Assembly: GCA_022616515.1 (NCBI GenBank)
Contig: JAKEEQ010000213.1
Span: 1-43,997, forward strand
Source of the DNA: Chloroflexota bacterium
Lineage (GTDB): Bacteria; Chloroflexota; Anaerolineae; Aggregatilineales; J027
Reading direction: 5' to 3'
DNA length: 43,997 bases
The notes under the pieces were generated by a model. The model saw only the letters and a list, made by a program, of their open reading frames with translations, had not been told where the DNA came from and did no database searches. The translations under genes were made by a program, and so were the position numbers. Numbering within the stretch: the first letter of the stretch is position 1; each line of letters starts with the position of its first letter. This document shows, piece by piece, positions 4,241 to 29,351 of this stretch.

Positions 4241-5044
4241 CTAGGTGATGCCCGCAAACAAATCATCTTCCGGTTCGCGCCCGCCATTGACAAGGCTGTA
4301 GACTCGCATATAGTGCTGCATCCTGCACAACGCCACTGCATTCTCGCTCAAACGTGCCAGAAAGCCGTCATCAGCCGGTATCTGGGTCTGGTGACATTTA
4401 ACGGCTTTCATGACATCTTCAGCATAATCGCTGCCATCAATGCGCGTCGTGACCGCCCAGTCAGGCCAGATAACGGCGCGACGTTCAACTCCATCCACCA
4501 TCATTACAATGTCGTCAAACACTGACAGGTACACATCCACCAACTCCTGTGTGACGATATGATAGTAGAGTTTGGAAACGCGATGGGGTGGATGAGGAAT
4601 AGGGAAACTGGTATCGGCGGCTGCCACTAACGCCGCACTGGTGAACTGTGAAATGGCGATGTGGTCAGGATGTCCATAGGCACCGTCAGGCGCAAATGTT
4701 AAGACCACCTGCGGCCTGACCTGTCGAACGTAGGCTGCAATTCTGGCAATGGCTTCCGGTGGATCAGCCTGATCAAGATCACCGTCGATATAATCCAGCA
4801 AGCAAATATCGCCGATATTGAGGCATTCCGCCGCCGTCCGCAGCTCCTTTTCGCGAATCTGACCCAGCGCGTCCATGCCCGGATTGTCTGACGGGTCGCG
4901 ATGCCAGCCGCGTTCGCCGCGCGTCGCCGTAATCAGATACGTCTCGACACCTTCAGCGGCATATTTCGCCAGCGTCGCGCCAAAACCGAGCGTTTCATCG
5001 TCGGGATGGGCCAGAATACACATCAAGCGTAGCGGTTCAGCCAT
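4241..5044 (-). CDS. PIG-L family (LmbE-like) de-N-acetylase
   Basis: A 267-aa protein with the PIG-L/LmbE zinc site AHPDDE at residues 12-17, a downstream HPDH motif (in AYGHPDHIAIS, about 130) and TATRGERGW near 40. The family removes acetyl groups from GlcNAc-type substrates, as in GPI, mycothiol, bacillithiol or lincomycin pathways. This subgroup, with the PSDNPGMDALGQIREKEL segment, resembles the stand-alone MshB/BshB-like enzymes, but the substrate cannot be read from sequence. Its ATG overlaps the end of the upstream kinase/NB-ARC gene by 8 bases, so the two are probably translationally coupled. Confidence 0.9.
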   Translation of the reverse strand: MAEPLRLMCILAHPDDETLGFGATLAKYAAEGVETYLITATRGERGWHRDPSDNPGMDALGQIREKELRTAAECLNIGDICLLDYIDGDLDQADPPEAIARIAAYVRQVRPQVVLTFAPDGAYGHPDHIAISQFTSAALVAAADTSFPIPHPPHRVSKLYYHIVTQELVDVYLSVFDDIVMMVDGVERRAVIWPDWAVTTRIDGSDYAEDVMKAVKCHQTQIPADDGFLARLSENAVALCRMQHYMRVYSLVNGGREPEDDLFAGIT

Positions 5045-8000
5045 GAGATTCCTCCACGAGCAGATCGTTTACGATAGTCTCCAGCACGAGGTTCTTGCCG
5101 CGTGCAAATGCGGGATTCTTACTGTCACCATGCTGTTCGAGCAGCGTTTTCACCTCATCTTTTGTTTCCTGATTGCTGAGGGGATGGTGGAAAATCAGGC
5201 CCAGCAGTTCGTGACCGCGTTCGGTCTGGTTGCTGTGCAAGAACAAATCGCCAAAGCCCACCAGTGTTGAGAGGATAAGCGGGGTCAAGTGCATCGCCAC
5301 GACCAATTCAAGCGCCCGGCGATGGTTTTCACGTGCTGCCCGGTAATCGCCGAGGGCTGTCATCGTCAGGCCCAGCCCGGTTAACGCGGTGGCAAGCCCG
5401 CCTCTATCGCCAAGATCTTTGTAGATGGCGATGCTTTCCTCAAATTGAGATTTGGCTTGAGCGGCATCACCTTCCAACAGTGCCACCCGTCCCAGATGTT
5501 TGAGCGAGACTGCCGTACCTTCCGGGTCTTTGAAAATCTCCTTGCGGATAGAGTAACTTGTCTGGTAGTGATGCCTCGCTTCGGCATAATCTCCCATCAC
5601 GCGGGCGATATGCCCCAGATCAATGCGGATATACGCCTCAAACCAGATTTGTTCAACTTTCCGCGCCAGCGACAGGGCCTGCTCGCTGTAGTGTTTGGCT
5701 GCTTGATAATCTCCTTTGCCAAAGGCGGCACTGGTCAGCACATAGTATGAGACTATTGCACTCATTTCATCACCCCGCGACTGATGGAAATGCAGAGCGT
5801 CGCTTGCAATTCGAATAGCCGTCTCATAATCACCCATCAGCGAATAAGTTAAACTCAGTGGGGTCATCGGGTCTTCATGTCCGACCGGGGGCTGGGCGAT
5901 TCGCATGAGATCGGTGCCCCGTTCCAGTGCAGTTTTTGCTTTCGCGATGTCACCCAGCCGAATCGACAGCCACCCGACGGCCATCAGCAGTTCGATGATC
6001 AGGCTGGCCTCTTCCTCAGTCGGCTCACCTGTATCAACCGCTTGCAGTGCCGCTTCGCTTGCTTCCAGACCTTCCCGGAACAGACTGCGAACTTGCCCGA
6101 CGCTGTGCAAAGCGACCATCAGTTTATTGAGTAGACTAATATCACGATGCGCGACTGCCCAACGCCACGTTGCACGCAGATTATCCATATCGGTTTCAAT
6201 CAATCGTATGGCTTCCTGATCAGCCATGCTGGTGAAATCGACAAACAATTTGCCAAAAAAGTCGGCATAATACCCGGCGTGAGCAGCGTACACATCCTCC
6301 CGCTGTCCCGACGCTTGCAGGCTTTCGTCGGCATACTGGCGGATGAGTTCGTGAATTTGATAGCGCCCGGTCATATCGCGTGACAGCAGGGACTTATTGA
6401 CCAGCGATGTCAGGGTACGCAGCGATGTTCCGGTGACAGCGATGGCTGCATCGCGGGTAAATCCACCCCGAAACACTGACAGTTTACTGAGCAGGTCGCG
6501 CTCATTCTCATTGAGCAGTGCCCATGAATATTCAAAAACGGCCCGGATGCTGCGGTGACGCTCCGGGGCATCGCGCATTTCGGTTTCCAGAAAGTCGACA
6601 TTTTGCTGGATTTCCGCCGCGATTTCATCCAACCGCAGCGTATCGACCCACCCGGCGGCCAGTTCAATGCCCAGCGGCATACCCATCACCAGACGGCAAA
6701 TGCGGGCCAGATACGGCACATCATCTTGTGCCAGCTCAAAATCGGGCTGGATACGGTGGGCGCTCTGCAAAAAGAGCTTGACACCACTGTAGTCCATGAC
6801 ATTTTCCGGCGTTTCCCACTCCGGGAATTCCATGCCGCCGATGGTGAAAATCGTCTCACCGCGCAAGTTCAGCCGCTCACGAGAAGTCACAATGATTTTG
6901 ATGTCCGGGGCGGTTTGCAAAATATCGGCCACCAGTGTCGCCGCGTCAATCACATGCTCGAAATTATCCAGCACCAGCAGCATCGACTTTTCGCGGAGGT
7001 AATCCAGTAACTGCTGGTCGGGCATGTCGGCGCTGTAAAACGAAAATTGCAGTGAGTCGGCAATGGTGGTGACGACCAACTCGGCGGCGGTAATCGGGGC
7101 CAGCGGCACGAAATATACGCCATTGGTAAACTTGTTGTGGCGTGTACCGTTCTGTCCGGTGAAATGCCGCGCTGTTTCGAGTGCAAGGCGTGTTTTGCCG
7201 ATGCCGCCCATACCCAGAATCGTTATCAGGCGGATATTCGGGTCGAGCAGGAAATTGTCCAGCGCTTCCAGTTCGCTCTCGCGACCGATGAAGGGCGTTA
7301 CCTGAGCGGGCAGGTTATGTTTGGTGGGCGGCGCGACCGCCGTCAGGTCTGTGGCGAAGCGTTTCAGGTGATTCGACTGTGGCTGGATAAAGGTTGCCCC
7401 GGAATCAGAAGTTCGCCCCAACAGAATCGACTCCAACTCTGCGCCGACAATTCGCACCGATGGGATGCGGGCCTGCGGATTCTTTTCCAACATCCGGTAA
7501 ACAAGATCCACCAGCGCGATGGGCACATCGGGACGCAGGCTTTCGAGATCAGGCACGGAAGCGGTCAGGATGCGGGTGATAGTCGCGGTCAGGGTTTCGC
7601 CCTCAAAGGGACGCTCACCCGATAACATCTCGAACAACATCACACCAAAGGCCCAGATGTCCGCCTGTGGGCCAACCGTGCCGCCGCCCAACACCTCCGG
7701 CGCTAAATAATCCACCGTGCCCACCAGTGCATTGGTCTCGGTGATGCGTTCTTTTTGGGCGATGTGGGCGATGCCGAAATCGGTCAGGCGCGGTGTGCCA
7801 TCCTCCGCCAGCAGCACATTGCCCGGTTTCAGGTCGCGGTGGATAATGTTCAGATGATGGGCACGGGTCAGCGCATCGGCGATTTCGATTGCCAGCTTGA
7901 CGACACGCTCAACAGGTAAGGATTCATGGTCCAACAGCACACCTAAATCACCGCCGGGCAGATATTCCAGCACCAGATAATGATTGCCATGTTCCTCAAC

Positions 8001-8222
8001 GGCATCCAGCATTTTGACGATATTAGGGTGATTGAGGTCGCGCAGGGCAGCCCCTTCGCGTTTGAAGCGTTCGATGAGGTCGGCGCGGGCTATTTCGGGC
8101 TTGAGGTGTTTAATGGCGACCTGTTCATGGGTCCGTGTATCAAGGCCGCAGTAGACGGTGCCCATCCCGCCGGACCCAATTTCATTTTCAATCTGGTATC
8201 GATTGGTTATCAAGGTGGTCAT
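5037..8222 (-). CDS. Ser/Thr protein kinase - NB-ARC - TPR protein (STAND family), intact copy
   Basis: A 1061-aa protein. The kinase domain (about 9-270) has glycine loop GSGGMGTV (16-23), catalytic AIK Lys38, the HRDLKPGN catalytic loop, DFG and an APE-like LAPEVL. A linker leads to an NB-ARC NTPase with P-loop GMGGIGKTR (about 340), kinase-2 LLVLDNFEHV and the GMPLGIELAA motif, then a winged-helix region (KLSVFRGGFTR). The last about 450 residues are TPR-like helical repeats. Such proteins are signalling switches that oligomerise on ligand binding. The ATG overlaps the upstream TPR reading frame as ATGA (8219-8222), and GGAGAG precedes it. It is a close paralogue of the broken gene just upstream, pointing to tandem duplication. 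Target and trigger are unknown. Confidence 0.92.
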   Translation of the reverse strand: MTTLITNRYQIENEIGSGGMGTVYCGLDTRTHEQVAIKHLKPEIARADLIERFKREGAALRDLNHPNIVKMLDAVEEHGNHYLVLEYLPGGDLGVLLDHESLPVERVVKLAIEIADALTRAHHLNIIHRDLKPGNVLLAEDGTPRLTDFGIAHIAQKERITETNALVGTVDYLAPEVLGGGTVGPQADIWAFGVMLFEMLSGERPFEGETLTATITRILTASVPDLESLRPDVPIALVDLVYRMLEKNPQARIPSVRIVGAELESILLGRTSDSGATFIQPQSNHLKRFATDLTAVAPPTKHNLPAQVTPFIGRESELEALDNFLLDPNIRLITILGMGGIGKTRLALETARHFTGQNGTRHNKFTNGVYFVPLAPITAAELVVTTIADSLQFSFYSADMPDQQLLDYLREKSMLLVLDNFEHVIDAATLVADILQTAPDIKIIVTSRERLNLRGETIFTIGGMEFPEWETPENVMDYSGVKLFLQSAHRIQPDFELAQDDVPYLARICRLVMGMPLGIELAAGWVDTLRLDEIAAEIQQNVDFLETEMRDAPERHRSIRAVFEYSWALLNENERDLLSKLSVFRGGFTRDAAIAVTGTSLRTLTSLVNKSLLSRDMTGRYQIHELIRQYADESLQASGQREDVYAAHAGYYADFFGKLFVDFTSMADQEAIRLIETDMDNLRATWRWAVAHRDISLLNKLMVALHSVGQVRSLFREGLEASEAALQAVDTGEPTEEEASLIIELLMAVGWLSIRLGDIAKAKTALERGTDLMRIAQPPVGHEDPMTPLSLTYSLMGDYETAIRIASDALHFHQSRGDEMSAIVSYYVLTSAAFGKGDYQAAKHYSEQALSLARKVEQIWFEAYIRIDLGHIARVMGDYAEARHHYQTSYSIRKEIFKDPEGTAVSLKHLGRVALLEGDAAQAKSQFEESIAIYKDLGDRGGLATALTGLGLTMTALGDYRAARENHRRALELVVAMHLTPLILSTLVGFGDLFLHSNQTERGHELLGLIFHHPLSNQETKDEVKTLLEQHGDSKNPAFARGKNLVLETIVNDLLVEESHG

Positions 8223-9877
8223 GCCTCATTCTCTCCAAACTCAGCTTGTAATACCCCAAAAACGTCATCTAATTTCAGATTTTTTCCACGTTCTGTGGCG
8301 GCTGCATATAGTACCTCTCCGAGTTCGGCTTTAAGTGATTCACGAAAATCGCTCAACACCTGCCATTTATGGATCAGATGGCTCCGATTGTCTGCATGTG
8401 TGAAACACAACTCCAAATATTCTACGGCACGGATCTTTTGCCCTTTTGCTGCCAGTACCATTGCATACATTGGAATGATGAGCATCATAAAATGAGCATC
8501 ATTCATAAACACCAGATCCCAGACCCTTCGCAGATGAAATTCTAACTGTTCATAATTTGCAACAGAACCAAAGTACAGACAATAGGCGATAAAGCCGTTG
8601 ATTTTGAACTCAAATGTACTCTCCATTTTTTCATCGGTAGGCAGGGCTGTGCGAATAAGTTCTATGCATTTATCGTAGTCTTGATCGCGTACACATATGA
8701 TTATTGCCTTCGCCAGCAGATTCAGTGTTAGCAAGGTGTCATGATTAATATCATATGCCAACTCAAAACTCTGCTCGATGGAAACATTGGCATTCTCTAA
8801 TTCACCTCTTGTGATAAACAAGGCCGCCCGCATGGCCGTAGTAGAGGCCATCGTAAGGCGATCATTGGCTTGTCGTGCGACTTCATAGGCATCCTTCAGA
8901 CGTTCCAACGCTTTTTCCGGGTGATACTGTGCAGTACTCATGACATAACCTGCAATCGCATCACTGAGACCTAACACATCGCCCACTTCTTGCCGCAGCG
9001 CAATGCTCTGTTGTGAATAGCGTTCGCGGGTACGTACCTCTCTCAAACGTGTATAGCACCATCCGATGTCATCCAACACGCGTGCCTCGTAGAAGCGATC
9101 TCCAATCCGGCGAAAAGATTGCAAACTGTCTTCTAGTATTGCTAAACCACGTCGTATTACATCCGGTTCGTTGGATGTGTGATGACCAATTTGAAGGCCA
9201 AGTTCCCGCTGGCAGAAGGCGATTTCTGGCATATTGCCAGATTGCTGAGCGATAGCGAGACTGCGTTCCATAATCTCTATACGCTGGTGAGGGTCAAATG
9301 TTGGAGGGAAGCGCAGCCCCACCCGCCCGGCAATCGAAGGGGCATTTGTACGGGAAACAGGCCATTGCTCACGTGCCCGCTGGAATAACTCAACCCCTCC
9401 TTCTAACCACGACTGAAGTGTCAGGTACAGGTAAAGACTGTCTATCATTTTATCGACTAGATTATCATGTCGCTGCGCCACTGCCCAATCCCATGCCGTA
9501 CGACAGTTACTATATTCAGTCTCAATGGCATTGACCGCCTGCACCTGACCTTTTCCCTTAAGATAGGGGACCTGTTGGGCTAATAATTCCGCATAGTAAG
9601 CAGCATGGGCATCACTGGCGGCATCCTTTTCACCTGATGCGTCAAGATGCTGGGCAATGTACTGGCGCAGCAATTCGTGAATAGTAAAACGTCCTGTGTC
9701 TGGATTGCGCTGGAGGAGTGAGTTATTCATCAGGTTCATCAACGTGCGCAGATTAGCCCCGGCAACTTCTACTGCCGCTTCACGGGTGAAGCCACCCCTG
9801 AACACCGATAGCTTCATAAAAACCTGCTGCTCGGCTTGACCCAGCATCCGGGCCGTCTTTGACCCAGCATCTGCCAC
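8219..9877 (-). CDS. C-terminal (TPR) part of a frameshifted kinase/NB-ARC/TPR gene
   Basis: A 552-codon frame carrying the winged-helix segment (MKLSVFRGGFTREAAVEV, about residue 20) and a long TPR-like helical array matching the second half of the intact paralogue at 5037-8222. Its apparent start is a GTG at 9877 inside sequence that homology shows to be internal, and the first about 20 residues come from a 23-nt insertion read out of register. It is therefore best seen as the detached 3' half of the gene starting at 11553, not as an independent gene, unless internal initiation occurs. It ends in an ATGA overlap with the intact kinase gene. Confidence 0.75.
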   Translation of the reverse strand: MADAGSKTARMLGQAEQQVFMKLSVFRGGFTREAAVEVAGANLRTLMNLMNNSLLQRNPDTGRFTIHELLRQYIAQHLDASGEKDAASDAHAAYYAELLAQQVPYLKGKGQVQAVNAIETEYSNCRTAWDWAVAQRHDNLVDKMIDSLYLYLTLQSWLEGGVELFQRAREQWPVSRTNAPSIAGRVGLRFPPTFDPHQRIEIMERSLAIAQQSGNMPEIAFCQRELGLQIGHHTSNEPDVIRRGLAILEDSLQSFRRIGDRFYEARVLDDIGWCYTRLREVRTRERYSQQSIALRQEVGDVLGLSDAIAGYVMSTAQYHPEKALERLKDAYEVARQANDRLTMASTTAMRAALFITRGELENANVSIEQSFELAYDINHDTLLTLNLLAKAIIICVRDQDYDKCIELIRTALPTDEKMESTFEFKINGFIAYCLYFGSVANYEQLEFHLRRVWDLVFMNDAHFMMLIIPMYAMVLAAKGQKIRAVEYLELCFTHADNRSHLIHKWQVLSDFRESLKAELGEVLYAAATERGKNLKLDDVFGVLQAEFGENEA

Positions 9878-11553
9878 GACTGGTCAAAGACGGCCCGGAT
9901 GCTGTGCTGGCGTTCCGGGACCTCTCCCCCGGTGCTTTGCAGAAAGTCGATGCTCTGCTCGATTTCCGCCGCGATTTCTTGTGGAGTGAGCATGGTCAGC
10001 CACGCGCCTGCCAGCACAATTCCCAGCGGCATCCCCTCCACTAGGCCACAGATTCGCGCCACATAATCCAGATTGTCTTCAGTGAGTTCAAAACCGGGGC
10101 GAGCACGCTGCGCACTGTTCATAAACAGTTTCACAGCGGCGTACTCAAGCGCATCTTCCGGTGTCTCCCAATCCGGGAAATCCATGCCGGACAGGTGGAA
10201 CACCGTTTCGCCCGGTTGGGTAAGGCGCTGGCGCGATGTTGCTAGAATTTTGACGTTCGGTGCCGCGTGCAATATATCTATCACTAAGCCCGCACCGTCG
10301 AGCAGATGCTCGAAATTGTCCATCACCAGTAGCAAATCTTTGTTGGCTAGAAAATTGAGTAGTTGAGCTTTTTGTTCCCGTCCATCGGCCTGAAACTTAT
10401 AGTCAGTTGCATCAGCGATGGCAGACACAATGGAGCCAGCATCCGAGATGGGAGCCAGTTCAACAACAAATGCACTGTTGGCAAACAGGGTAGGTTGGGA
10501 GTCGTCCATATATTGTCTGGCAGCTTCCAGAGCCAATCGCGTTTTGCCCATGCCGCCCGGCGCGACAATTGTCAGCAGACGGATGGCTGGATCACGTATC
10601 AGTTTTGTAAGCTCGCCTAATTCAACTTCACGTCCCACAAACGGTGTGGTCTGTACCGGGAGATTGTGGCGACGGCGGTGAATGATGGTGGTATCCACCG
10701 CTGTGTCAGGGTCAAAACGGGTGGCAACAGGGATATAATCCCGCCCATGCAGGATGTCTTCCAATTCCAGACCAACCTGACGCACGCTGCGTACCCGGCT
10801 TTGCAGGTCACGGGCCAGCATTCGATAGACCAGATCAACCAGCGCGACGGGCGTATCAGGTCGCAGTTTTTCAAGGTCTGGAATGGGTGCCGTCATAATG
10901 GCGGTAATGGTGGCGGTCAGGGTTTCGCCCTCAAAGGGACGCTCACCCGATAACATCTCAAACAGCATCACACCAAAGGCCCAGATGTCCGCCTGCGGGC
11001 CAACTGTGCCGCCGCTTAACACTTCAGGGGCAAGATAATCCACTGTTCCAACGATAACATCAGTGTCAGTAATGCGATTTTTACTGGCGATGTGGGCGAT
11101 GCCGAAATCGGTCAGGCGTGGCGTGCCATCCTCCGCCAGCAGCACGTTGCCCGGCTTCAGGTCGCGGTGGATGATATTCAGATGATGGGCACGGGTCAGG
11201 GCATCAGCGATTTCGATGGCGAGTTTTATGACACGCTCAACAGGTAATGATTCATGGTCAAGCACCGCGCCCAAATCACCGCCGGATAGATACTCTAGAA
11301 TAAGGTAATGATTGCCTTTTTCCTCAACGGCATCCAGCATCTTGACGATGTTGGGATGATTCAGGTTCCGCAGCGCAGCCCCTTCGCGTTTGAAGCGTTC
11401 GATGAGGTCAGCACGGGCCATCTCCGGCTTGAGATGTTTAATGGCGACCTGTTCATGGGTCCGTGTATCAAGGCCGCAGTAGACGGTGCCCATGCCGCCG
11501 GAGCCGATTTCGGCCTCAATCTGGTAGTGTCCAGCAATTTTGTTGCCAATCAT
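9814..11553 (-). CDS. N-terminal (kinase + NB-ARC) part of a frameshifted kinase/NB-ARC/TPR gene
   Basis: The start is taken at the ATG encoding MIGNKIAGHYQIEAEIGSGG, with GGAG 9 bases upstream; a TTG at 11580 would add nine residues. The kinase domain has GSGGMGTV, AIKHLK, HRDLKPGN and DFG, and the NB-ARC P-loop is APGGMGKTR with LLLVMDNFEHLL. Homology to the intact paralogue runs through RSIRAVFDQSWQMLGQ. The frame then enters the inserted 23 nt, and the protein ends after a foreign tail (RRPGCWVKPSSRFL). The product would keep kinase and NTPase but lose the winged-helix continuation and all TPRs, so it might be unregulated or inert. Removing the 23 nt restores a continuous frame to 8219. 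Confidence 0.8.
   Translation of the reverse strand: MIGNKIAGHYQIEAEIGSGGMGTVYCGLDTRTHEQVAIKHLKPEMARADLIERFKREGAALRNLNHPNIVKMLDAVEEKGNHYLILEYLSGGDLGAVLDHESLPVERVIKLAIEIADALTRAHHLNIIHRDLKPGNVLLAEDGTPRLTDFGIAHIASKNRITDTDVIVGTVDYLAPEVLSGGTVGPQADIWAFGVMLFEMLSGERPFEGETLTATITAIMTAPIPDLEKLRPDTPVALVDLVYRMLARDLQSRVRSVRQVGLELEDILHGRDYIPVATRFDPDTAVDTTIIHRRRHNLPVQTTPFVGREVELGELTKLIRDPAIRLLTIVAPGGMGKTRLALEAARQYMDDSQPTLFANSAFVVELAPISDAGSIVSAIADATDYKFQADGREQKAQLLNFLANKDLLLVMDNFEHLLDGAGLVIDILHAAPNVKILATSRQRLTQPGETVFHLSGMDFPDWETPEDALEYAAVKLFMNSAQRARPGFELTEDNLDYVARICGLVEGMPLGIVLAGAWLTMLTPQEIAAEIEQSIDFLQSTGGEVPERQHSIRAVFDQSWQMLGQRRPGCWVKPSSRFL
9842..9904. repeat. 23-bp perfect inverted repeat at the kinase frameshift
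   Basis: The arms 9842-9864 and 9882-9904 are perfect reverse complements separated by 17 bases. On the coding (minus) strand the direct repeat GATGCTGGGTCAA also occurs twice around the insertion. The arm at 9882-9904 is the conserved coding sequence (SIRAVFD); the arm at 9842-9864 is the acquired one. Confidence 0.95.
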
Positions 11554-11891
11554 ATGAAACGCTCCATCATCTACGCTCAAGACGATGCATAAATTTCGCA
11601 GGTGGCGGGAAGTTGACGGACGTGGCGGGTAAACCCTTACCTCGCCCTGAACGGTTTCGGATGTTTTTCTCTCAGGACGCCCCGTTGGGCGTCCCTACGA
11701 AAAAACCGTGATCCGAATGTAGGGACGTGCAACGGCACGTCCTGGAACCTCAGACCGGGAGAGGGTTAATGTGCCCCGTAATGCCTACAAAATCCGTGTC
11801 GCCACCACGTGATTTTAATAATATAGTTTCTTCGACAGGAAGATTGTCGTATAGCTGACAGAGATTCTAGCACAGAACGAAAAATCGCGTA
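11554..11891. other. intergenic gap with one BIME-like element
   Basis: A 338-base gap upstream of the broken kinase gene. Apart from the paired palindrome at 11675-11742 I see no gene, no convincing promoter and no terminator. Confidence 0.6.
11675..11742. repeat. BIME-like element, palindrome types iii + iv
   Basis: GGACGCCCCGTTGGGCGTCC (11675-11694) is followed by CTACG. A spacer then leads to GTAG and GGACGTGCAACGGCACGTCC (11723-11742). Related pairs occur at 15692-15756 and 23589-23654. Confidence 0.9.
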
Positions 11892-25082: not shown

Positions 25083-26204
25083 CTAACTAACCCTACTGCG
25101 GGAGTGCTTCTCAATGCGGCGTTTAAAAAAGCCTGCCCGCCACAATCCAGCCAGCAGGATAATCAACCCCACCCACCGCGAAAAATGTGCGCGGTCATGC
25201 GCCAGCGAAATATCCGCCCATGTCACGAAGGCACGTTCGGCAAACACGGGCTTAAGTTGCCCGGTGTGAACATTCAGGATATGCGAATAGCCGTCCAGAT
25301 TCAACAGAATCCACTGCTCATCCGGCGACCATGCGCGAAGCGTGCGGCACAGATTGACTGTCATTAAGCACTCCGAACTCAGGGACAGTGGCTCGGTGGT
25401 GATCTGTGCGTTTTTTCCGGTAGCGGTATCGAAAACAAATACATGGGAGTCACGCCCCGGCACTAAATATGCCACATCTTTACGGTCAGATGATGCCACC
25501 ATTTCCGCCACATCTACCTTAAGCAGCGGCGAACGTTCCTGCTCAGCACCAAAATAAATCCCCTGATCAAACAGGTACGGCTTATGACAGCAGTCTGCAA
25601 CCGACGTAAACGGCACATCCGGCTCAAAGATCATGTGCCCCAAATAAATATCAATAATATACGAGCCAAACTGTGACGCCGACCATATCTCAACGGTTCG
25701 ATTGTCGCGCCAGCGTCCCGCTGGGAATAATTCCATTGGCAGCGGCAGCCAGCGTGAGCGTCCGTTGATCACATTCAAAATCAGGACATAATTTCCGCCA
25801 AGCATCGCATCATGAATAATCCAGCCCACATGGCGACTGTCCGGGGACCACGTGCCGAAGTAATCGATGGAGTCATGAAGCTCAAAGTCGATGGTGTGGG
25901 TCAATGTGCCCGAAATCAAGTCAAGGACGTAAGCGCGGTCCGGGCGGGCGGTGTAGGTAATAAGCAGCCACTGCCCGTTTGGTGACGGGCGTTCGGTGAC
26001 AAACGATACCTCTTGCAGATCATCCCGTGATGATACCTGTCCAGCAAGAAAGGTTCTGCCTGTATTCACATTCTGCCGATAGATGGTGTTCCCGTGATGG
26101 ATGATGAGGTTCACACCGCCGGGGTCTTCGGGATAATGCCACCACAGCAGCAGCGACAGCATCAAGCCGCTTAATCCACCCAGTACGCACGCATATTTCC
26201 ACAT
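25083..26204 (-). CDS. membrane-anchored beta-propeller protein (tandem paralogue 3)
   Basis: The start is placed at the ATG in the TGATG overlap with the preceding gene, giving MWKYACVLGGLSGLMLSLL as an N-terminal anchor; a longer frame to 26261 would merely translate the previous gene's tail. The 373-aa protein has WD40/PD40-type blades such as SPNGQWLLITYTARPDRAYV, TWSPDSRHVGWI and AWSPDEQWILLNLDGY, and a C-terminal hydrophobic segment (RWVGLIILLAGLWRAGFF). Most of the chain should lie outside the membrane. It is related to the two upstream genes. Such propellers usually bind proteins or polysaccharides; no catalytic site is visible. Confidence 0.8.
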   Translation of the reverse strand: MWKYACVLGGLSGLMLSLLLWWHYPEDPGGVNLIIHHGNTIYRQNVNTGRTFLAGQVSSRDDLQEVSFVTERPSPNGQWLLITYTARPDRAYVLDLISGTLTHTIDFELHDSIDYFGTWSPDSRHVGWIIHDAMLGGNYVLILNVINGRSRWLPLPMELFPAGRWRDNRTVEIWSASQFGSYIIDIYLGHMIFEPDVPFTSVADCCHKPYLFDQGIYFGAEQERSPLLKVDVAEMVASSDRKDVAYLVPGRDSHVFVFDTATGKNAQITTEPLSLSSECLMTVNLCRTLRAWSPDEQWILLNLDGYSHILNVHTGQLKPVFAERAFVTWADISLAHDRAHFSRWVGLIILLAGLWRAGFFKRRIEKHSRSRVS

Positions 26205-26266
26205 CAGCGCACCGCCCGCCACATCCCAAGCATCAGGAATCCTGCGCTTGCTACCAGCCACAACGG
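26199..26266. repeat. 68-bp junction repeat, copy 1
   Basis: Matches 27284-27351 at 67 of 68 bases. It covers the end of one propeller gene and the start of the next, including the TGATG overlap. Confidence 0.92.
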
Positions 26267-27289
26267 AAAATGTTCCCTGTTGTACGGCAGAGAGATGTCC
26301 GTCCAGAAGATTGAATAAACGATTTCATTGAAGATGGTTTTGACCTGCCCGGACCTCAAATTGATGATTTGTACGCTGTCATCTATTCTCAAAACAAGCC
26401 ACTCCTTATCTGGCGACCACGGACCAAATATTGAGCAGAGTGCGTTTTCATTCAGGCATTCATTTCTCAGACGAAGCGGTGTTTCTGTGACTTGCCTACT
26501 TGTATCGGTGCCAATATCATAAACGAAAACGTGTGGTTCGCTTCCGGCTAGTTGTATGTAGGCGATTTGCTTTTCATCAGGCGAGAGCCTCGCGGCAATC
26601 ACATGTGAGTTTTCCTCAATAGAAGTTAGGCTCAACTCAATTGGATTGTTTAACGAACTACACTCATCGGGAAAAGTATAACATCCTTGACCAGTGAAAG
26701 AAGATACATATATTTGCCCGGTAGTTATATCAATAGCGTATATCTCACGTTGTGTGTCGCTCCACACTTCAACCATATGAGCATTTTGCCAACGTCCGGC
26801 AGTATAGCGACCACTGCGCAGAAGGTGTTTCCGCATCTCTCCCGTGACTGGATCTAGGACGAGAACAAAATGCTGATAGCGGAATTGATCTGTTGCTATC
26901 CAGCCTACATGGCGGCTGTCAGGCGACCACGTTCCAAAATAATCCATTTCATCGTGCAAGTGAAATTCAATATATTGGGTGACAGTGCCTGCCAACAGAT
27001 CAATCACATAAGCTTTGTCTGGAGCATCAAAATACCCAAACGTAGTGGCTGCCCATTGTCCATCTGGTGATATATTGATCGAGTACGAAACAAATCCACC
27101 TATATCTTCAACAGCCCATGGTTGAAGTAAGCGTGAATTGATACCCGTGTCCATATCGTATCGGTAGATCTGGCCGTAGTCCTCAATGATGATATGCAAG
27201 CCACCGGCATCTTCTGGAAAGCCCCACGTCACTAGGAACGAGATAATCAAACCGCCCAATCCGCCCAACACCCACACATATCTCCACAT
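26204..27289 (-). CDS. membrane-anchored beta-propeller protein (tandem paralogue 2)
   Basis: The start is the ATG in the TGATG overlap at 27289 (MWRYVWVLGGLGGLIISFL), an N-terminal membrane anchor. The 361-aa protein has propeller-type blades including SPDGQWAATTFGYFDAPDKA, TWSPDSRHVGWIATD, LSPDEKQIAYIQLAG and PWSPDKEWLVLRID, and a C-terminal helix, PLWLVASAGFLMLGMWRAVR, nearly identical to that of paralogue 1. Coupled translation with both neighbours is likely. It contains extra cysteines (QGCYTFPDEC) that could form a disulfide outside the cell. Function unknown beyond a probable binding or scaffold role at the cell surface. Confidence 0.8.
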   Translation of the reverse strand: MWRYVWVLGGLGGLIISFLVTWGFPEDAGGLHIIIEDYGQIYRYDMDTGINSRLLQPWAVEDIGGFVSYSINISPDGQWAATTFGYFDAPDKAYVIDLLAGTVTQYIEFHLHDEMDYFGTWSPDSRHVGWIATDQFRYQHFVLVLDPVTGEMRKHLLRSGRYTAGRWQNAHMVEVWSDTQREIYAIDITTGQIYVSSFTGQGCYTFPDECSSLNNPIELSLTSIEENSHVIAARLSPDEKQIAYIQLAGSEPHVFVYDIGTDTSRQVTETPLRLRNECLNENALCSIFGPWSPDKEWLVLRIDDSVQIINLRSGQVKTIFNEIVYSIFWTDISLPYNREHFPLWLVASAGFLMLGMWRAVR

Positions 27290-27351
27290 CAGCGCACCGC
27301 CCGCCACATCCCAAGCATCAAGAATCCTGCGCTTGCTACCAGCCACAACGG
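27284..27351. repeat. 68-bp junction repeat, copy 2
   Basis: Same as 26199-26266 with one mismatch. It encodes the last residues SAGFLMLGMWRAVR of the upstream gene and the first residues of the downstream gene. Confidence 0.92.
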
Positions 27352-28380
27352 GAAATGGCTTCTATCATTCGCAAAGGAAATGTCTGTCCAATCTGATGTC
27401 ACCCTACCGTCCAGCGCAACCGGGTATAGCTGGCCTGTCTTGGCATCAAGGATGTGTAACTCGCCGGTCATGTTGAGCAATATCCAGTGATCGTCGGGTG
27501 ACCATGCGCGGAGTGTCCGGCAAACATTGAACACATTCAGACACTCATCGGGTAGAGGTAACGTTGTACTGGTTATCTGCGTACTGTCGCCAGTGTTTCT
27601 AGTGTAAACAAACAGATGTGGCTGGTTTTGGATAAGTTGAAGATAGGCAATTTTTTCAAGATTCGGGGAGGCCAGTACCCCGACTGTATCAGTTTTCAGG
27701 ATAAACTCGCGCTGGTGATTGGTGTACAGATAAATGCTGTCATTATCATAACCAGCCTGTGCACAGCAGTTTCTTACGGAGGAATAGGATACATCCGGCA
27801 CAAACAGCATGTCGCCCGAATAAATATCGATCACATATGCCCCGGCCCTTGATGCCGACCAGATTTCAACCGTGCGATCATCGCGCCAGCGTCCTGCCGT
27901 AAAGTACCCTGACGGCAGCGGAAATTCGTGTTGCTGGCCGGTGATGACATTCAGCAAGAGTACATAATCGGCCCCATTTCCACGAGTATAGGTTACCCAT
28001 CCAATGTGACGGCTGTCTGGTGACCATGTGCCAAAGTAATCAATGCCGTCGTGCAGTTCGAATTCAAGGCGGTGGGAAAGGCGGTCGGAAATCACATCAA
28101 CCACAAAAGCGCGGTCGGGTCTACCCGTGTGGGTGATAAGCGCCCAATGTCCGTTGGGAGATGTGCGGACCGTCCTGAAGGTCGGCTGGGAGCCATCCTC
28201 CGCCAGCGGAAGCGGCAGCAGGTGGTGCAGTTCTGCCGACTCGACATCATAACGATAAATGCCGTCAGTATGTTCCACAATCAGATTTACTCGCCCCAGA
28301 TTTTGCGGATACTGCCGCCATACCAGCAGCGATATGAGTAACCCACCAAATCCACCCACCAGCCACACATATTTCCACAT
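27289..28380 (-). CDS. membrane-anchored beta-propeller protein (tandem paralogue 1)
   Basis: The start is the ATG in the TGATG overlap at 28380 (MWKYVWLVGGFGGLLISLLV), again an N-terminal anchor. The 363-aa protein has blades SPNGHWALITHTGRPDRAFV, TWSPDSRHIGWVTYTRG, IWSASRAGAYVIDIYSGDM and AWSPDDHWILLNMTGEL, and ends in a C-terminal membrane helix. It is closest to paralogue 3 over the whole length but shares its 3' end with paralogue 2. A cysteine pair (NCCAQAG) matches CCHK in paralogue 3. Predicted surface binding protein. Confidence 0.8.
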   Translation of the reverse strand: MWKYVWLVGGFGGLLISLLVWRQYPQNLGRVNLIVEHTDGIYRYDVESAELHHLLPLPLAEDGSQPTFRTVRTSPNGHWALITHTGRPDRAFVVDVISDRLSHRLEFELHDGIDYFGTWSPDSRHIGWVTYTRGNGADYVLLLNVITGQQHEFPLPSGYFTAGRWRDDRTVEIWSASRAGAYVIDIYSGDMLFVPDVSYSSVRNCCAQAGYDNDSIYLYTNHQREFILKTDTVGVLASPNLEKIAYLQLIQNQPHLFVYTRNTGDSTQITSTTLPLPDECLNVFNVCRTLRAWSPDDHWILLNMTGELHILDAKTGQLYPVALDGRVTSDWTDISFANDRSHFPLWLVASAGFLMLGMWRAVR

Positions 28381-29351
28381 CAGCGCACCATCCGCCGCAA
28401 CCCGACCACCATCGCCCCGGCCAGCACCACTACCAGCCATTCTCCTGCCCAGTGCTTATCCACAATGGGCGAGAAAACCGGATACATATCATTGGCGGGA
28501 CGATAGGTGAGGCGTTGGGTGTCGCTGCCATCGGGGCGCACACGGTAAATCTCAAAATTGTGGTCGCGGTTGGTGGCGTATACAATCCACGCGCCATCGC
28601 CTGACCAGCTTGGATTGAGCGAATATACATCCGAGAACGTCAGGTTCTGCAGGTTGCTCGTCGCTAAATCCAGCCGGAAAAGCTCGGACTTGGCCTCGCG
28701 ATAGCGAACATACACCAGCGATGTGCCATCCGGTGACAACGCGGGCTGGCTGTCGTTGTCACCGTTATCGGTGAGCTGCTGGATTGCGCTGCCATCGGAC
28801 CGCATCCGGTACAGATTCAAGTGCTCGTAGTTCACCGCCCCGGAAAAAACAATCCACTCCCCATCCGTGCTCCATTTCGGCGCATAGTTGGGGGCAAGAG
28901 CCGTGTTAATCAGGCTGGCCTCACCCGTCATACCCGCCCGGTACAACCGGCGAAGCTCGCCAGTGGTACGATTCGTAAACAGAATCTGGCTGCCATCCGG
29001 CGACCACTCCGGTGTGTCATAAGCGCCAATGTCACCCAGAAAGGGGCTGATTTCCCCCGTGCGTACCGTCAGGATTTGCAGCGTACGGTCATGGCTGCGG
29101 CGTCTGGCTTCTATACTCAACATAAGCCGGGAGGCATCGGGTGACCATGACAGCGCAAATTCACGGAGCGAGGTGTAGGTTAGTCGTTTCAGGTCGGTGC
29201 CATCGGTGCGCATACGCCATACGTCAGACTGCCCGTTGTCATGGCTGACAAAGGCAATCCAGGCCGATTCGGGGTCGGCTCGCCGCGCCACAACCAATGT
29301 ACTGACCAATATCAGGAGGGTGCTGGCAAACAGTAATCCGATTCGCTGCAT
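28380..29351 (-). CDS. TolB-like beta-propeller protein with terminal membrane anchors
   Basis: A 323-aa protein. The N-terminal signal or anchor (MQRIGLLFASTLLILVSTLV) is followed by four to five PD40/TolB-type blades with the repeating pattern (D/E)I(Y/W)RM(R/D)(T/P)DGS or DGT followed by Q or RLT and SPDGS or SPDAS (IAFVSHDNGQSDVWRMRTDG; YRMRSDGSAIQQLTDNGDND; YRVRPDGSDTQRLTYRP), and a C-terminal helix (WLVVVLAGAMVVGLRRMVR). It is the first gene of a four-gene set, divergent from the WD40/zinc-ribbon gene at 29427 with 75 bases between them. The stop overlaps the next start as TGATG. TolB-type propellers bind peptides; no partner is identified here. Confidence 0.85.
   Translation of the reverse strand: MQRIGLLFASTLLILVSTLVVARRADPESAWIAFVSHDNGQSDVWRMRTDGTDLKRLTYTSLREFALSWSPDASRLMLSIEARRRSHDRTLQILTVRTGEISPFLGDIGAYDTPEWSPDGSQILFTNRTTGELRRLYRAGMTGEASLINTALAPNYAPKWSTDGEWIVFSGAVNYEHLNLYRMRSDGSAIQQLTDNGDNDSQPALSPDGTSLVYVRYREAKSELFRLDLATSNLQNLTFSDVYSLNPSWSGDGAWIVYATNRDHNFEIYRVRPDGSDTQRLTYRPANDMYPVFSPIVDKHWAGEWLVVVLAGAMVVGLRRMVR

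What the first reader, a model, noticed from the sequence alone, without database searches (positions are those of the whole stretch)
9842..9904. Frameshift in a kinase/NB-ARC/TPR gene explained by a quasipalindrome-templated 23-nt insertion
On the coding strand, deleting AGACGGCCCG plus one copy of the direct repeat GATGCTGGGTCAA (23 nt) restores a frame that matches the intact neighbour (QMLGQ joined to AEQQVFMKLSVFRGG). The inserted segment makes a perfect 23-bp inverted repeat of the upstream conserved codons for SIRAVFD. That is the product expected when a nascent strand ending at GGTCAA folds back on TTGACC, copies the opposite strand, and returns to the original template at GATG. The event is readable base by base and splits a large signalling protein into kinase/NTPase and TPR halves.
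Basis: partly seen in the sequence, partly recalled or inferred. Interest (0 to 1): 0.72.

Follow-up and report, generated by a model that had tools for sequence, protein, structure and literature searches.

The report
Gene split by fold-back copying error
A bacterial signalling gene carries a 23-base insertion that is a mirror copy of its own upstream bases, the readable trace of the copying machinery briefly folding back on itself; this kind of mutation has been known since the 1980s, so it is a clear example and not a new phenomenon.

Summary
On the coding (-) strand, a perfect 23-bp inverted repeat (9842-9864 / 9882-9904, 17-nt spacer) and a perfect 13-nt direct repeat (9836-9848 / 9859-9871) mark a 23-nt insertion. 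It shifts the frame of a Ser/Thr kinase-NTPase-TPR gene and leaves ORFs 9814-11580 and 8219-9877. The inverted repeat is far beyond chance: the next longest in the window has 12-bp arms, and the longest in 921 kb of the same assembly has 18-bp arms. Thirty-two homologous copies, including the intact neighbour, all align across the site without a gap, so the insertion is derived and private to this genome. A four-point template-switch model (6-nt entry homology, 17 nt copied, 7-nt return homology) reproduces the observed bases exactly. It belongs to the published class of events in which the return point lies behind the departure point. Without raw reads, a library-made molecule cannot be excluded. 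The mechanism has long been known, so interest is low.

The parts
9814..11580 (-). Upstream ORF: Ser/Thr protein kinase domain followed by AAA_16/NB-ARC-like NTPase, truncated by the frameshift; the last 14 residues are out of frame
   Evidence: Pfam Pkinase 3.1e-57, AAA_16 7.5e-7 and NB-ARC 9.2e-5, the last two just below the gathering score; translation
8219..9877 (-). Downstream ORF: remainder of the gene with the TPR region; no stop or further shift in 552 codons
   Evidence: TPR_12 6.1e-7, at the edge of the cut-off; homologous over most of its length to intact proteins in 80 of 154 genomes of the order
9882..9904 (-). Source arm of the inverted repeat (original codons for SIRAVFD)
   Evidence: conserved QHSIRAVFD / HRSIRAVF motif in relatives
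9842..9864 (-). Copied arm: GGTCAAAGACGGCCCGGATGCTG = 6-nt entry homology + 10 new nt + 7-nt return homology
9849..9858 (-). 10-nt core AGACGGCCCG that has no source other than the inverted copy
9836..9848 (-). Direct repeat copy 2, GATGCTGGGTCAA (resumed copying of the original template)
9859..9871 (-). Direct repeat copy 1, GATGCTGGGTCAA (before the switch)
5037..8222 (-). Intact tandem paralogue of 1061 aa: kinase, NB-ARC, TPR

Best explanation
A single replication template-switch mutation, recent in this lineage, inserted 23 nt into a kinase/NTPase/TPR gene and broke its frame. Inferred steps, taking the coding strand as nascent: synthesis passed GATGCTG and reached GGTCAA. The 3' end left its template and paired with TTGACC, either upstream on the same strand or at the matching place on the other parental strand. 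It then copied 17 nt in reverse (AGACGGCCCGGATGCTG). Next it re-paired with the original template at GATGCTG, 13 nt behind the departure point, and carried on. This produces the inverted repeat and the direct repeat together. Shown: the sequence, its exact fit to the model, and its absence from relatives. Inferred: that it happened in the cell, which strand was nascent, and loss of function. The likely outcome is a pseudogene, or a truncated kinase-NTPase without its TPR sensor; intact paralogues remain in the genome.
For: Perfect 23/23 inverted repeat and 13/13 direct repeat at the shift. A four-point model run on the site without the insertion returns the observed sequence exactly, +23 nt. 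30 distinct homologous loci, plus L038 (closest orthologue found, 45% aa) and the in-window neighbour, align with no gap across the site, so the insertion is derived. The 23-mer occurs nowhere else in the genome except as the native codons of paralogues with 2-3 mismatches, so it is not a mobile repeat and the local arm is the best source. The arm length has no equal in 0.96 Mb of the same assembly. The same event class ('point 4 precedes point 1', seen as one large insertion with a direct repeat and inverted repeats) is described in PMC7954356. Intramolecular template switching in bacteria is experimentally established in E. coli (PMC7202029).
Against: No raw reads were available, so the molecule could have been made during library preparation. 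The genome is an incomplete draft (564 contigs, 80.6% complete). No genome of the same genus was matched, so the pre-event sequence is inferred from relatives at about 56-68% DNA identity at the site. Sites with comparable short homologies are not rare (254 of 43,597 positions by a crude count), so the sequence context permits the event but does not predict it.
Confidence: 0.82

Rival explanations
1. Library or sequencing artefact: a fold-back molecule formed during DNA preparation or amplification was carried into the assembly, and the gene is intact in the organism.
For: Fold-back chimeras at short inverted repeats are documented in sequencing libraries (PMC10908179). Both flanking reading frames are otherwise undamaged over 588 and 552 codons, as expected if the gene is really intact. 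The IR arms and the direct repeat show no decay.
Against: The described artefacts are mostly soft-clipped chimeric reads at low allele frequency, whereas this product leaves and returns to the original strand. The 6- and 7-nt junction homologies are shorter than usual assembly k-mers (own knowledge), so the assembler could not create the joins; they must be in reads. No other fold-back of this length was seen in 921 kb of the same assembly. The site is 9.8 kb inside a 44-kb contig.
Confidence: 0.13
2. Break repair with fold-back synthesis (SD-MMEJ-like): a broken end snapped back, was extended, and was joined to the other end through GATGCTG.
For: It also yields an inverted copy with short homologies at both joins; the sequence alone cannot fully separate it from replication switching (inference).
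Against: The 13-nt direct repeat requires both broken ends to carry the same 13 nt (a staggered break filled in), an extra assumption. Replication switching gives it simply by re-pairing behind the departure point.
Confidence: 0.04
3. Functional feature: a kept hairpin or programmed frameshift that makes two proteins or a regulated fusion.
For: The hairpin is very stable as RNA (-53.9 kcal/mol, z -10.1). The two ORFs overlap by 64 nt, and the upstream frame ends G TTT TTA TGA, where a -1 slip would enter the downstream frame (sequence).
Against: No relative has the hairpin, so there is no conservation. The hairpin lies upstream of the slip-like run, not downstream as in known -1 sites, and G TTT TTA is a poor heptamer. 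No Shine-Dalgarno-like sequence precedes the in-frame ATG of the insert.
Confidence: 0.01

Closest known systems
Quasipalindrome-associated template-switch mutations of bacteria and phage T4 (Ripley 1982; Dutra and Lovett 2006, thyA hotspot; cited in PMC7202029)
   Same: Short reverse-complement copy of adjacent sequence, entry and return at short homologies, and a product that forms a perfect inverted repeat.
   Different: Those events mostly correct an existing near-perfect palindrome by a few bases. Here a new 23-bp hairpin and a 13-nt direct repeat were made from 6- and 7-nt homologies.
Short-range template-switch events of the four-point model, class with point 4 before point 1 (PMC7954356)
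   Same: Order of switch points 3-2-4-1 (mirror 4-1-3-2). Appears as one insertion with direct and inverted repeats.
   Different: Described there for great apes; here in a draft bacterial genome, inside a gene, and shifting the frame.
Multidomain bacterial Ser/Thr kinases with NB-ARC/AAA and TPR regions (kinase domain closest to the StkP/PknA/PknB type)
   Same: Domain order in the intact neighbour and in the two halves.
   Different: This copy is split by the insertion.

Membership tests
Short-range template-switch mutation (four-point model) | Inserted or changed bases are an exact reverse complement of nearby sequence | tested here: met
   23/23 complementary, 17-nt spacer; exact model fit
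Short-range template-switch mutation (four-point model) | Derived state relative to related sequences | tested here: met
   32 homologues without the insertion
Short-range template-switch mutation (four-point model) | Single event of two switches explains all differences | tested here: met
   One departure and one return give the whole +23 nt; the pre-event bases themselves are inferred
Short-range template-switch mutation (four-point model) | Present in the organism's DNA and not only in the library | not testable with these tools
   No reads are held; indirect evidence only
Classical quasipalindrome correction | Pre-event sequence is an imperfect palindrome that the event makes perfect | tested here: not met
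   Without the insertion only 6- and 7-nt inverted matches exist, in an order that does not form one palindrome
Mobile palindromic repeat (REP/MITE type) | Copies dispersed in the genome | tested here: not met
   Only the two arms, plus native codons of three paralogues with 2-3 mismatches

The most novel reading that the evidence does not exclude
The new hairpin and the overlapping frames are not just damage: a slip at G TTT TTA, or re-initiation, still makes some full-length or paired protein, so a template switch turned a one-piece signalling protein into a tunable two-piece one.
Probability: 0.02. Interest if true: 0.5.

Novelty: new member of a known kind. Interest (0 to 1): 0.2.

Why it matters
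It is a clean natural example, in an uncultured bacterium, of a complex frameshift whose bases can all be assigned to a source. It shows that such indels, usually filed as random insertions or errors, can be recognised in draft genomes by a joint direct-plus-inverted-repeat signature. It does not change what is known about the mechanism.

Tried and rejected
Mobile repeat: rejected, no dispersed copies. Assembly-wide fold-back artefact: not seen in 921 kb of the same genome, with two other genomes scanned for comparison. A second, intact allele in the same assembly: none found. Close relatives in the genome collection: none by protein patterns of the downstream half or by a degenerate pattern of the junction's downstream flank, which fits both forms. 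Transfer from a paralogue instead of the local arm: paralogues have 2-3 mismatches and the local arm has none. No paper was found that surveys such events systematically in bacterial genomes, but the library holds only open-licence papers.

Full report
What is there. On the coding (-) strand around 9820-9910 the sequence reads CAGCATCCGGGCCGTCTTTGACC - AGTCGTGGCAGATGCTG - GGTCAAAGACGGCCCGGATGCTG - GGTCAAGCC. The repeat finder gives one perfect inverted repeat, 9842-9864 with 9882-9904 (23 nt, 17-nt spacer), and one perfect direct repeat of 13 nt, 9836-9848 and 9859-9871, spaced by 23. The upstream ORF (9814-11580) holds a kinase domain and an AAA/NB-ARC-like region. After QMLGQ it reads 14 foreign residues and stops. 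The downstream ORF (8219-9877) continues with AEQQVFMKLSVFRGG and a weak TPR region. The next gene, 5037-8222, is an intact 1061-aa protein of the same build.

Is it more than chance. In the whole window the next longest perfect inverted repeat with a spacer of up to 100 nt has 12-bp arms, and five Markov-shuffled windows reach at most 12. In 920,892 bases taken from 80 stretches of the same assembly only seven inverted repeats have arms of 14 or more, and the longest is 18. Two related genomes sampled in the same way gave arms of at most 15. The 23-bp arm is therefore the longest found in about 0.96 Mb of this genome.

Is it derived. Thirty distinct homologous loci from the same order, found with DNA and protein searches, align across the site with no gap at all. 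So do the closest orthologue found, G077:C117 / L038 (45% aa identity; read directly), and the in-window neighbour. None carries the insertion. In the listed matches of the order-wide search the family members otherwise sit in long open frames, usually above 700 codons; only one listed match has an internal stop. The insertion is thus private to this genome or population.

What made it. The site without the 23 nt contains TTGACC upstream of GGTCAA (6-nt inverted match) and CAGCATC upstream of GATGCTG (7-nt inverted match), with GATGCTG and GGTCAA directly adjacent. A script that stops synthesis after GGTCAA, pairs it with TTGACC, copies backwards until the product ends in GATGCTG, and resumes at GATGCTG gives the observed sequence exactly, 17 nt copied and 23 nt net gained. 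In the four-point notation the order of switch points is 3-2-4-1 on the coding strand (4-1-3-2 if the + strand was nascent). Events with point 4 before point 1 are described in PMC7954356 as appearing as one large insertion with direct and inverted repeats. In that framework an intra-strand switch needs point 2 before point 1. So if the coding strand was nascent, both fold-back on itself and switching to the other parental strand are possible; if the + strand was nascent, only the latter is. The bacterial mechanism itself is old: PMC7202029 summarises nascent-strand template switching at quasipalindromes from Ripley (1982) to the E. coli thyA hotspot.

Difference from the textbook case. The pre-event site was not a near-perfect palindrome awaiting correction. 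Short homologies of this kind are not rare: by a crude count 915 of 43,597 positions in the window have a 6-nt entry match within 66 nt, and 254 also have a 7-nt return match (the count includes some trivial overlaps). The event created a new hairpin, strong as DNA (-32.4 kcal/mol, z -11.1) and as RNA (-53.9 kcal/mol, z -10.1).

Could it be an artefact. No reads are held, so this stays open. Library fold-back chimeras are documented, but mainly as soft-clipped, low-frequency reads (PMC10908179). Against an artefact: the molecule leaves and returns to the original strand; the junction homologies are too short for an assembler to have joined by itself (own knowledge of assembly); and no comparable fold-back turned up in 921 kb of the same assembly. 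For an artefact: both flanking frames are otherwise undamaged, although a recent mutation would look the same. I put about 0.13 on it.

Consequence. Most likely a pseudogene or a truncated kinase-NTPase lacking its TPR region, with other paralogues left in the genome. A leaky rescue by a -1 slip at G TTT TTA TGA is conceivable but poorly supported.

Verdict. Observation confirmed and interpretation supported with refinements. It is a new example of a known mutational kind, with low general interest.

Noticed in passing
window 25083-28440 (-): Three tandem paralogous ORFs (380-392 aa, 40-50% identical to each other) without a Pfam match. Successive ORFs overlap by 58 nt in this listing, probably from upstream alternative starts.
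   Followed up: partly
window 9814-9822 (-): The broken upstream frame ends G TTT TTA TGA; a -1 slip there would enter the downstream frame. Probably chance.
   Followed up: partly
L129 14617-14652 (G000:C557): Perfect 36-bp palindrome tttgtaaccatagttaca/tgtaactatggttacaaa near an ORF end, operator-like; the longest other inverted repeat found in the sampled genome.
   Followed up: no
G077 sampled contigs (L154, L161, L163, L166, L168): Recurring spacer-free palindromes of the type gtaggg...ggca/tgcc...ccctac, which look like a dispersed palindromic repeat family in that relative.
   Followed up: no
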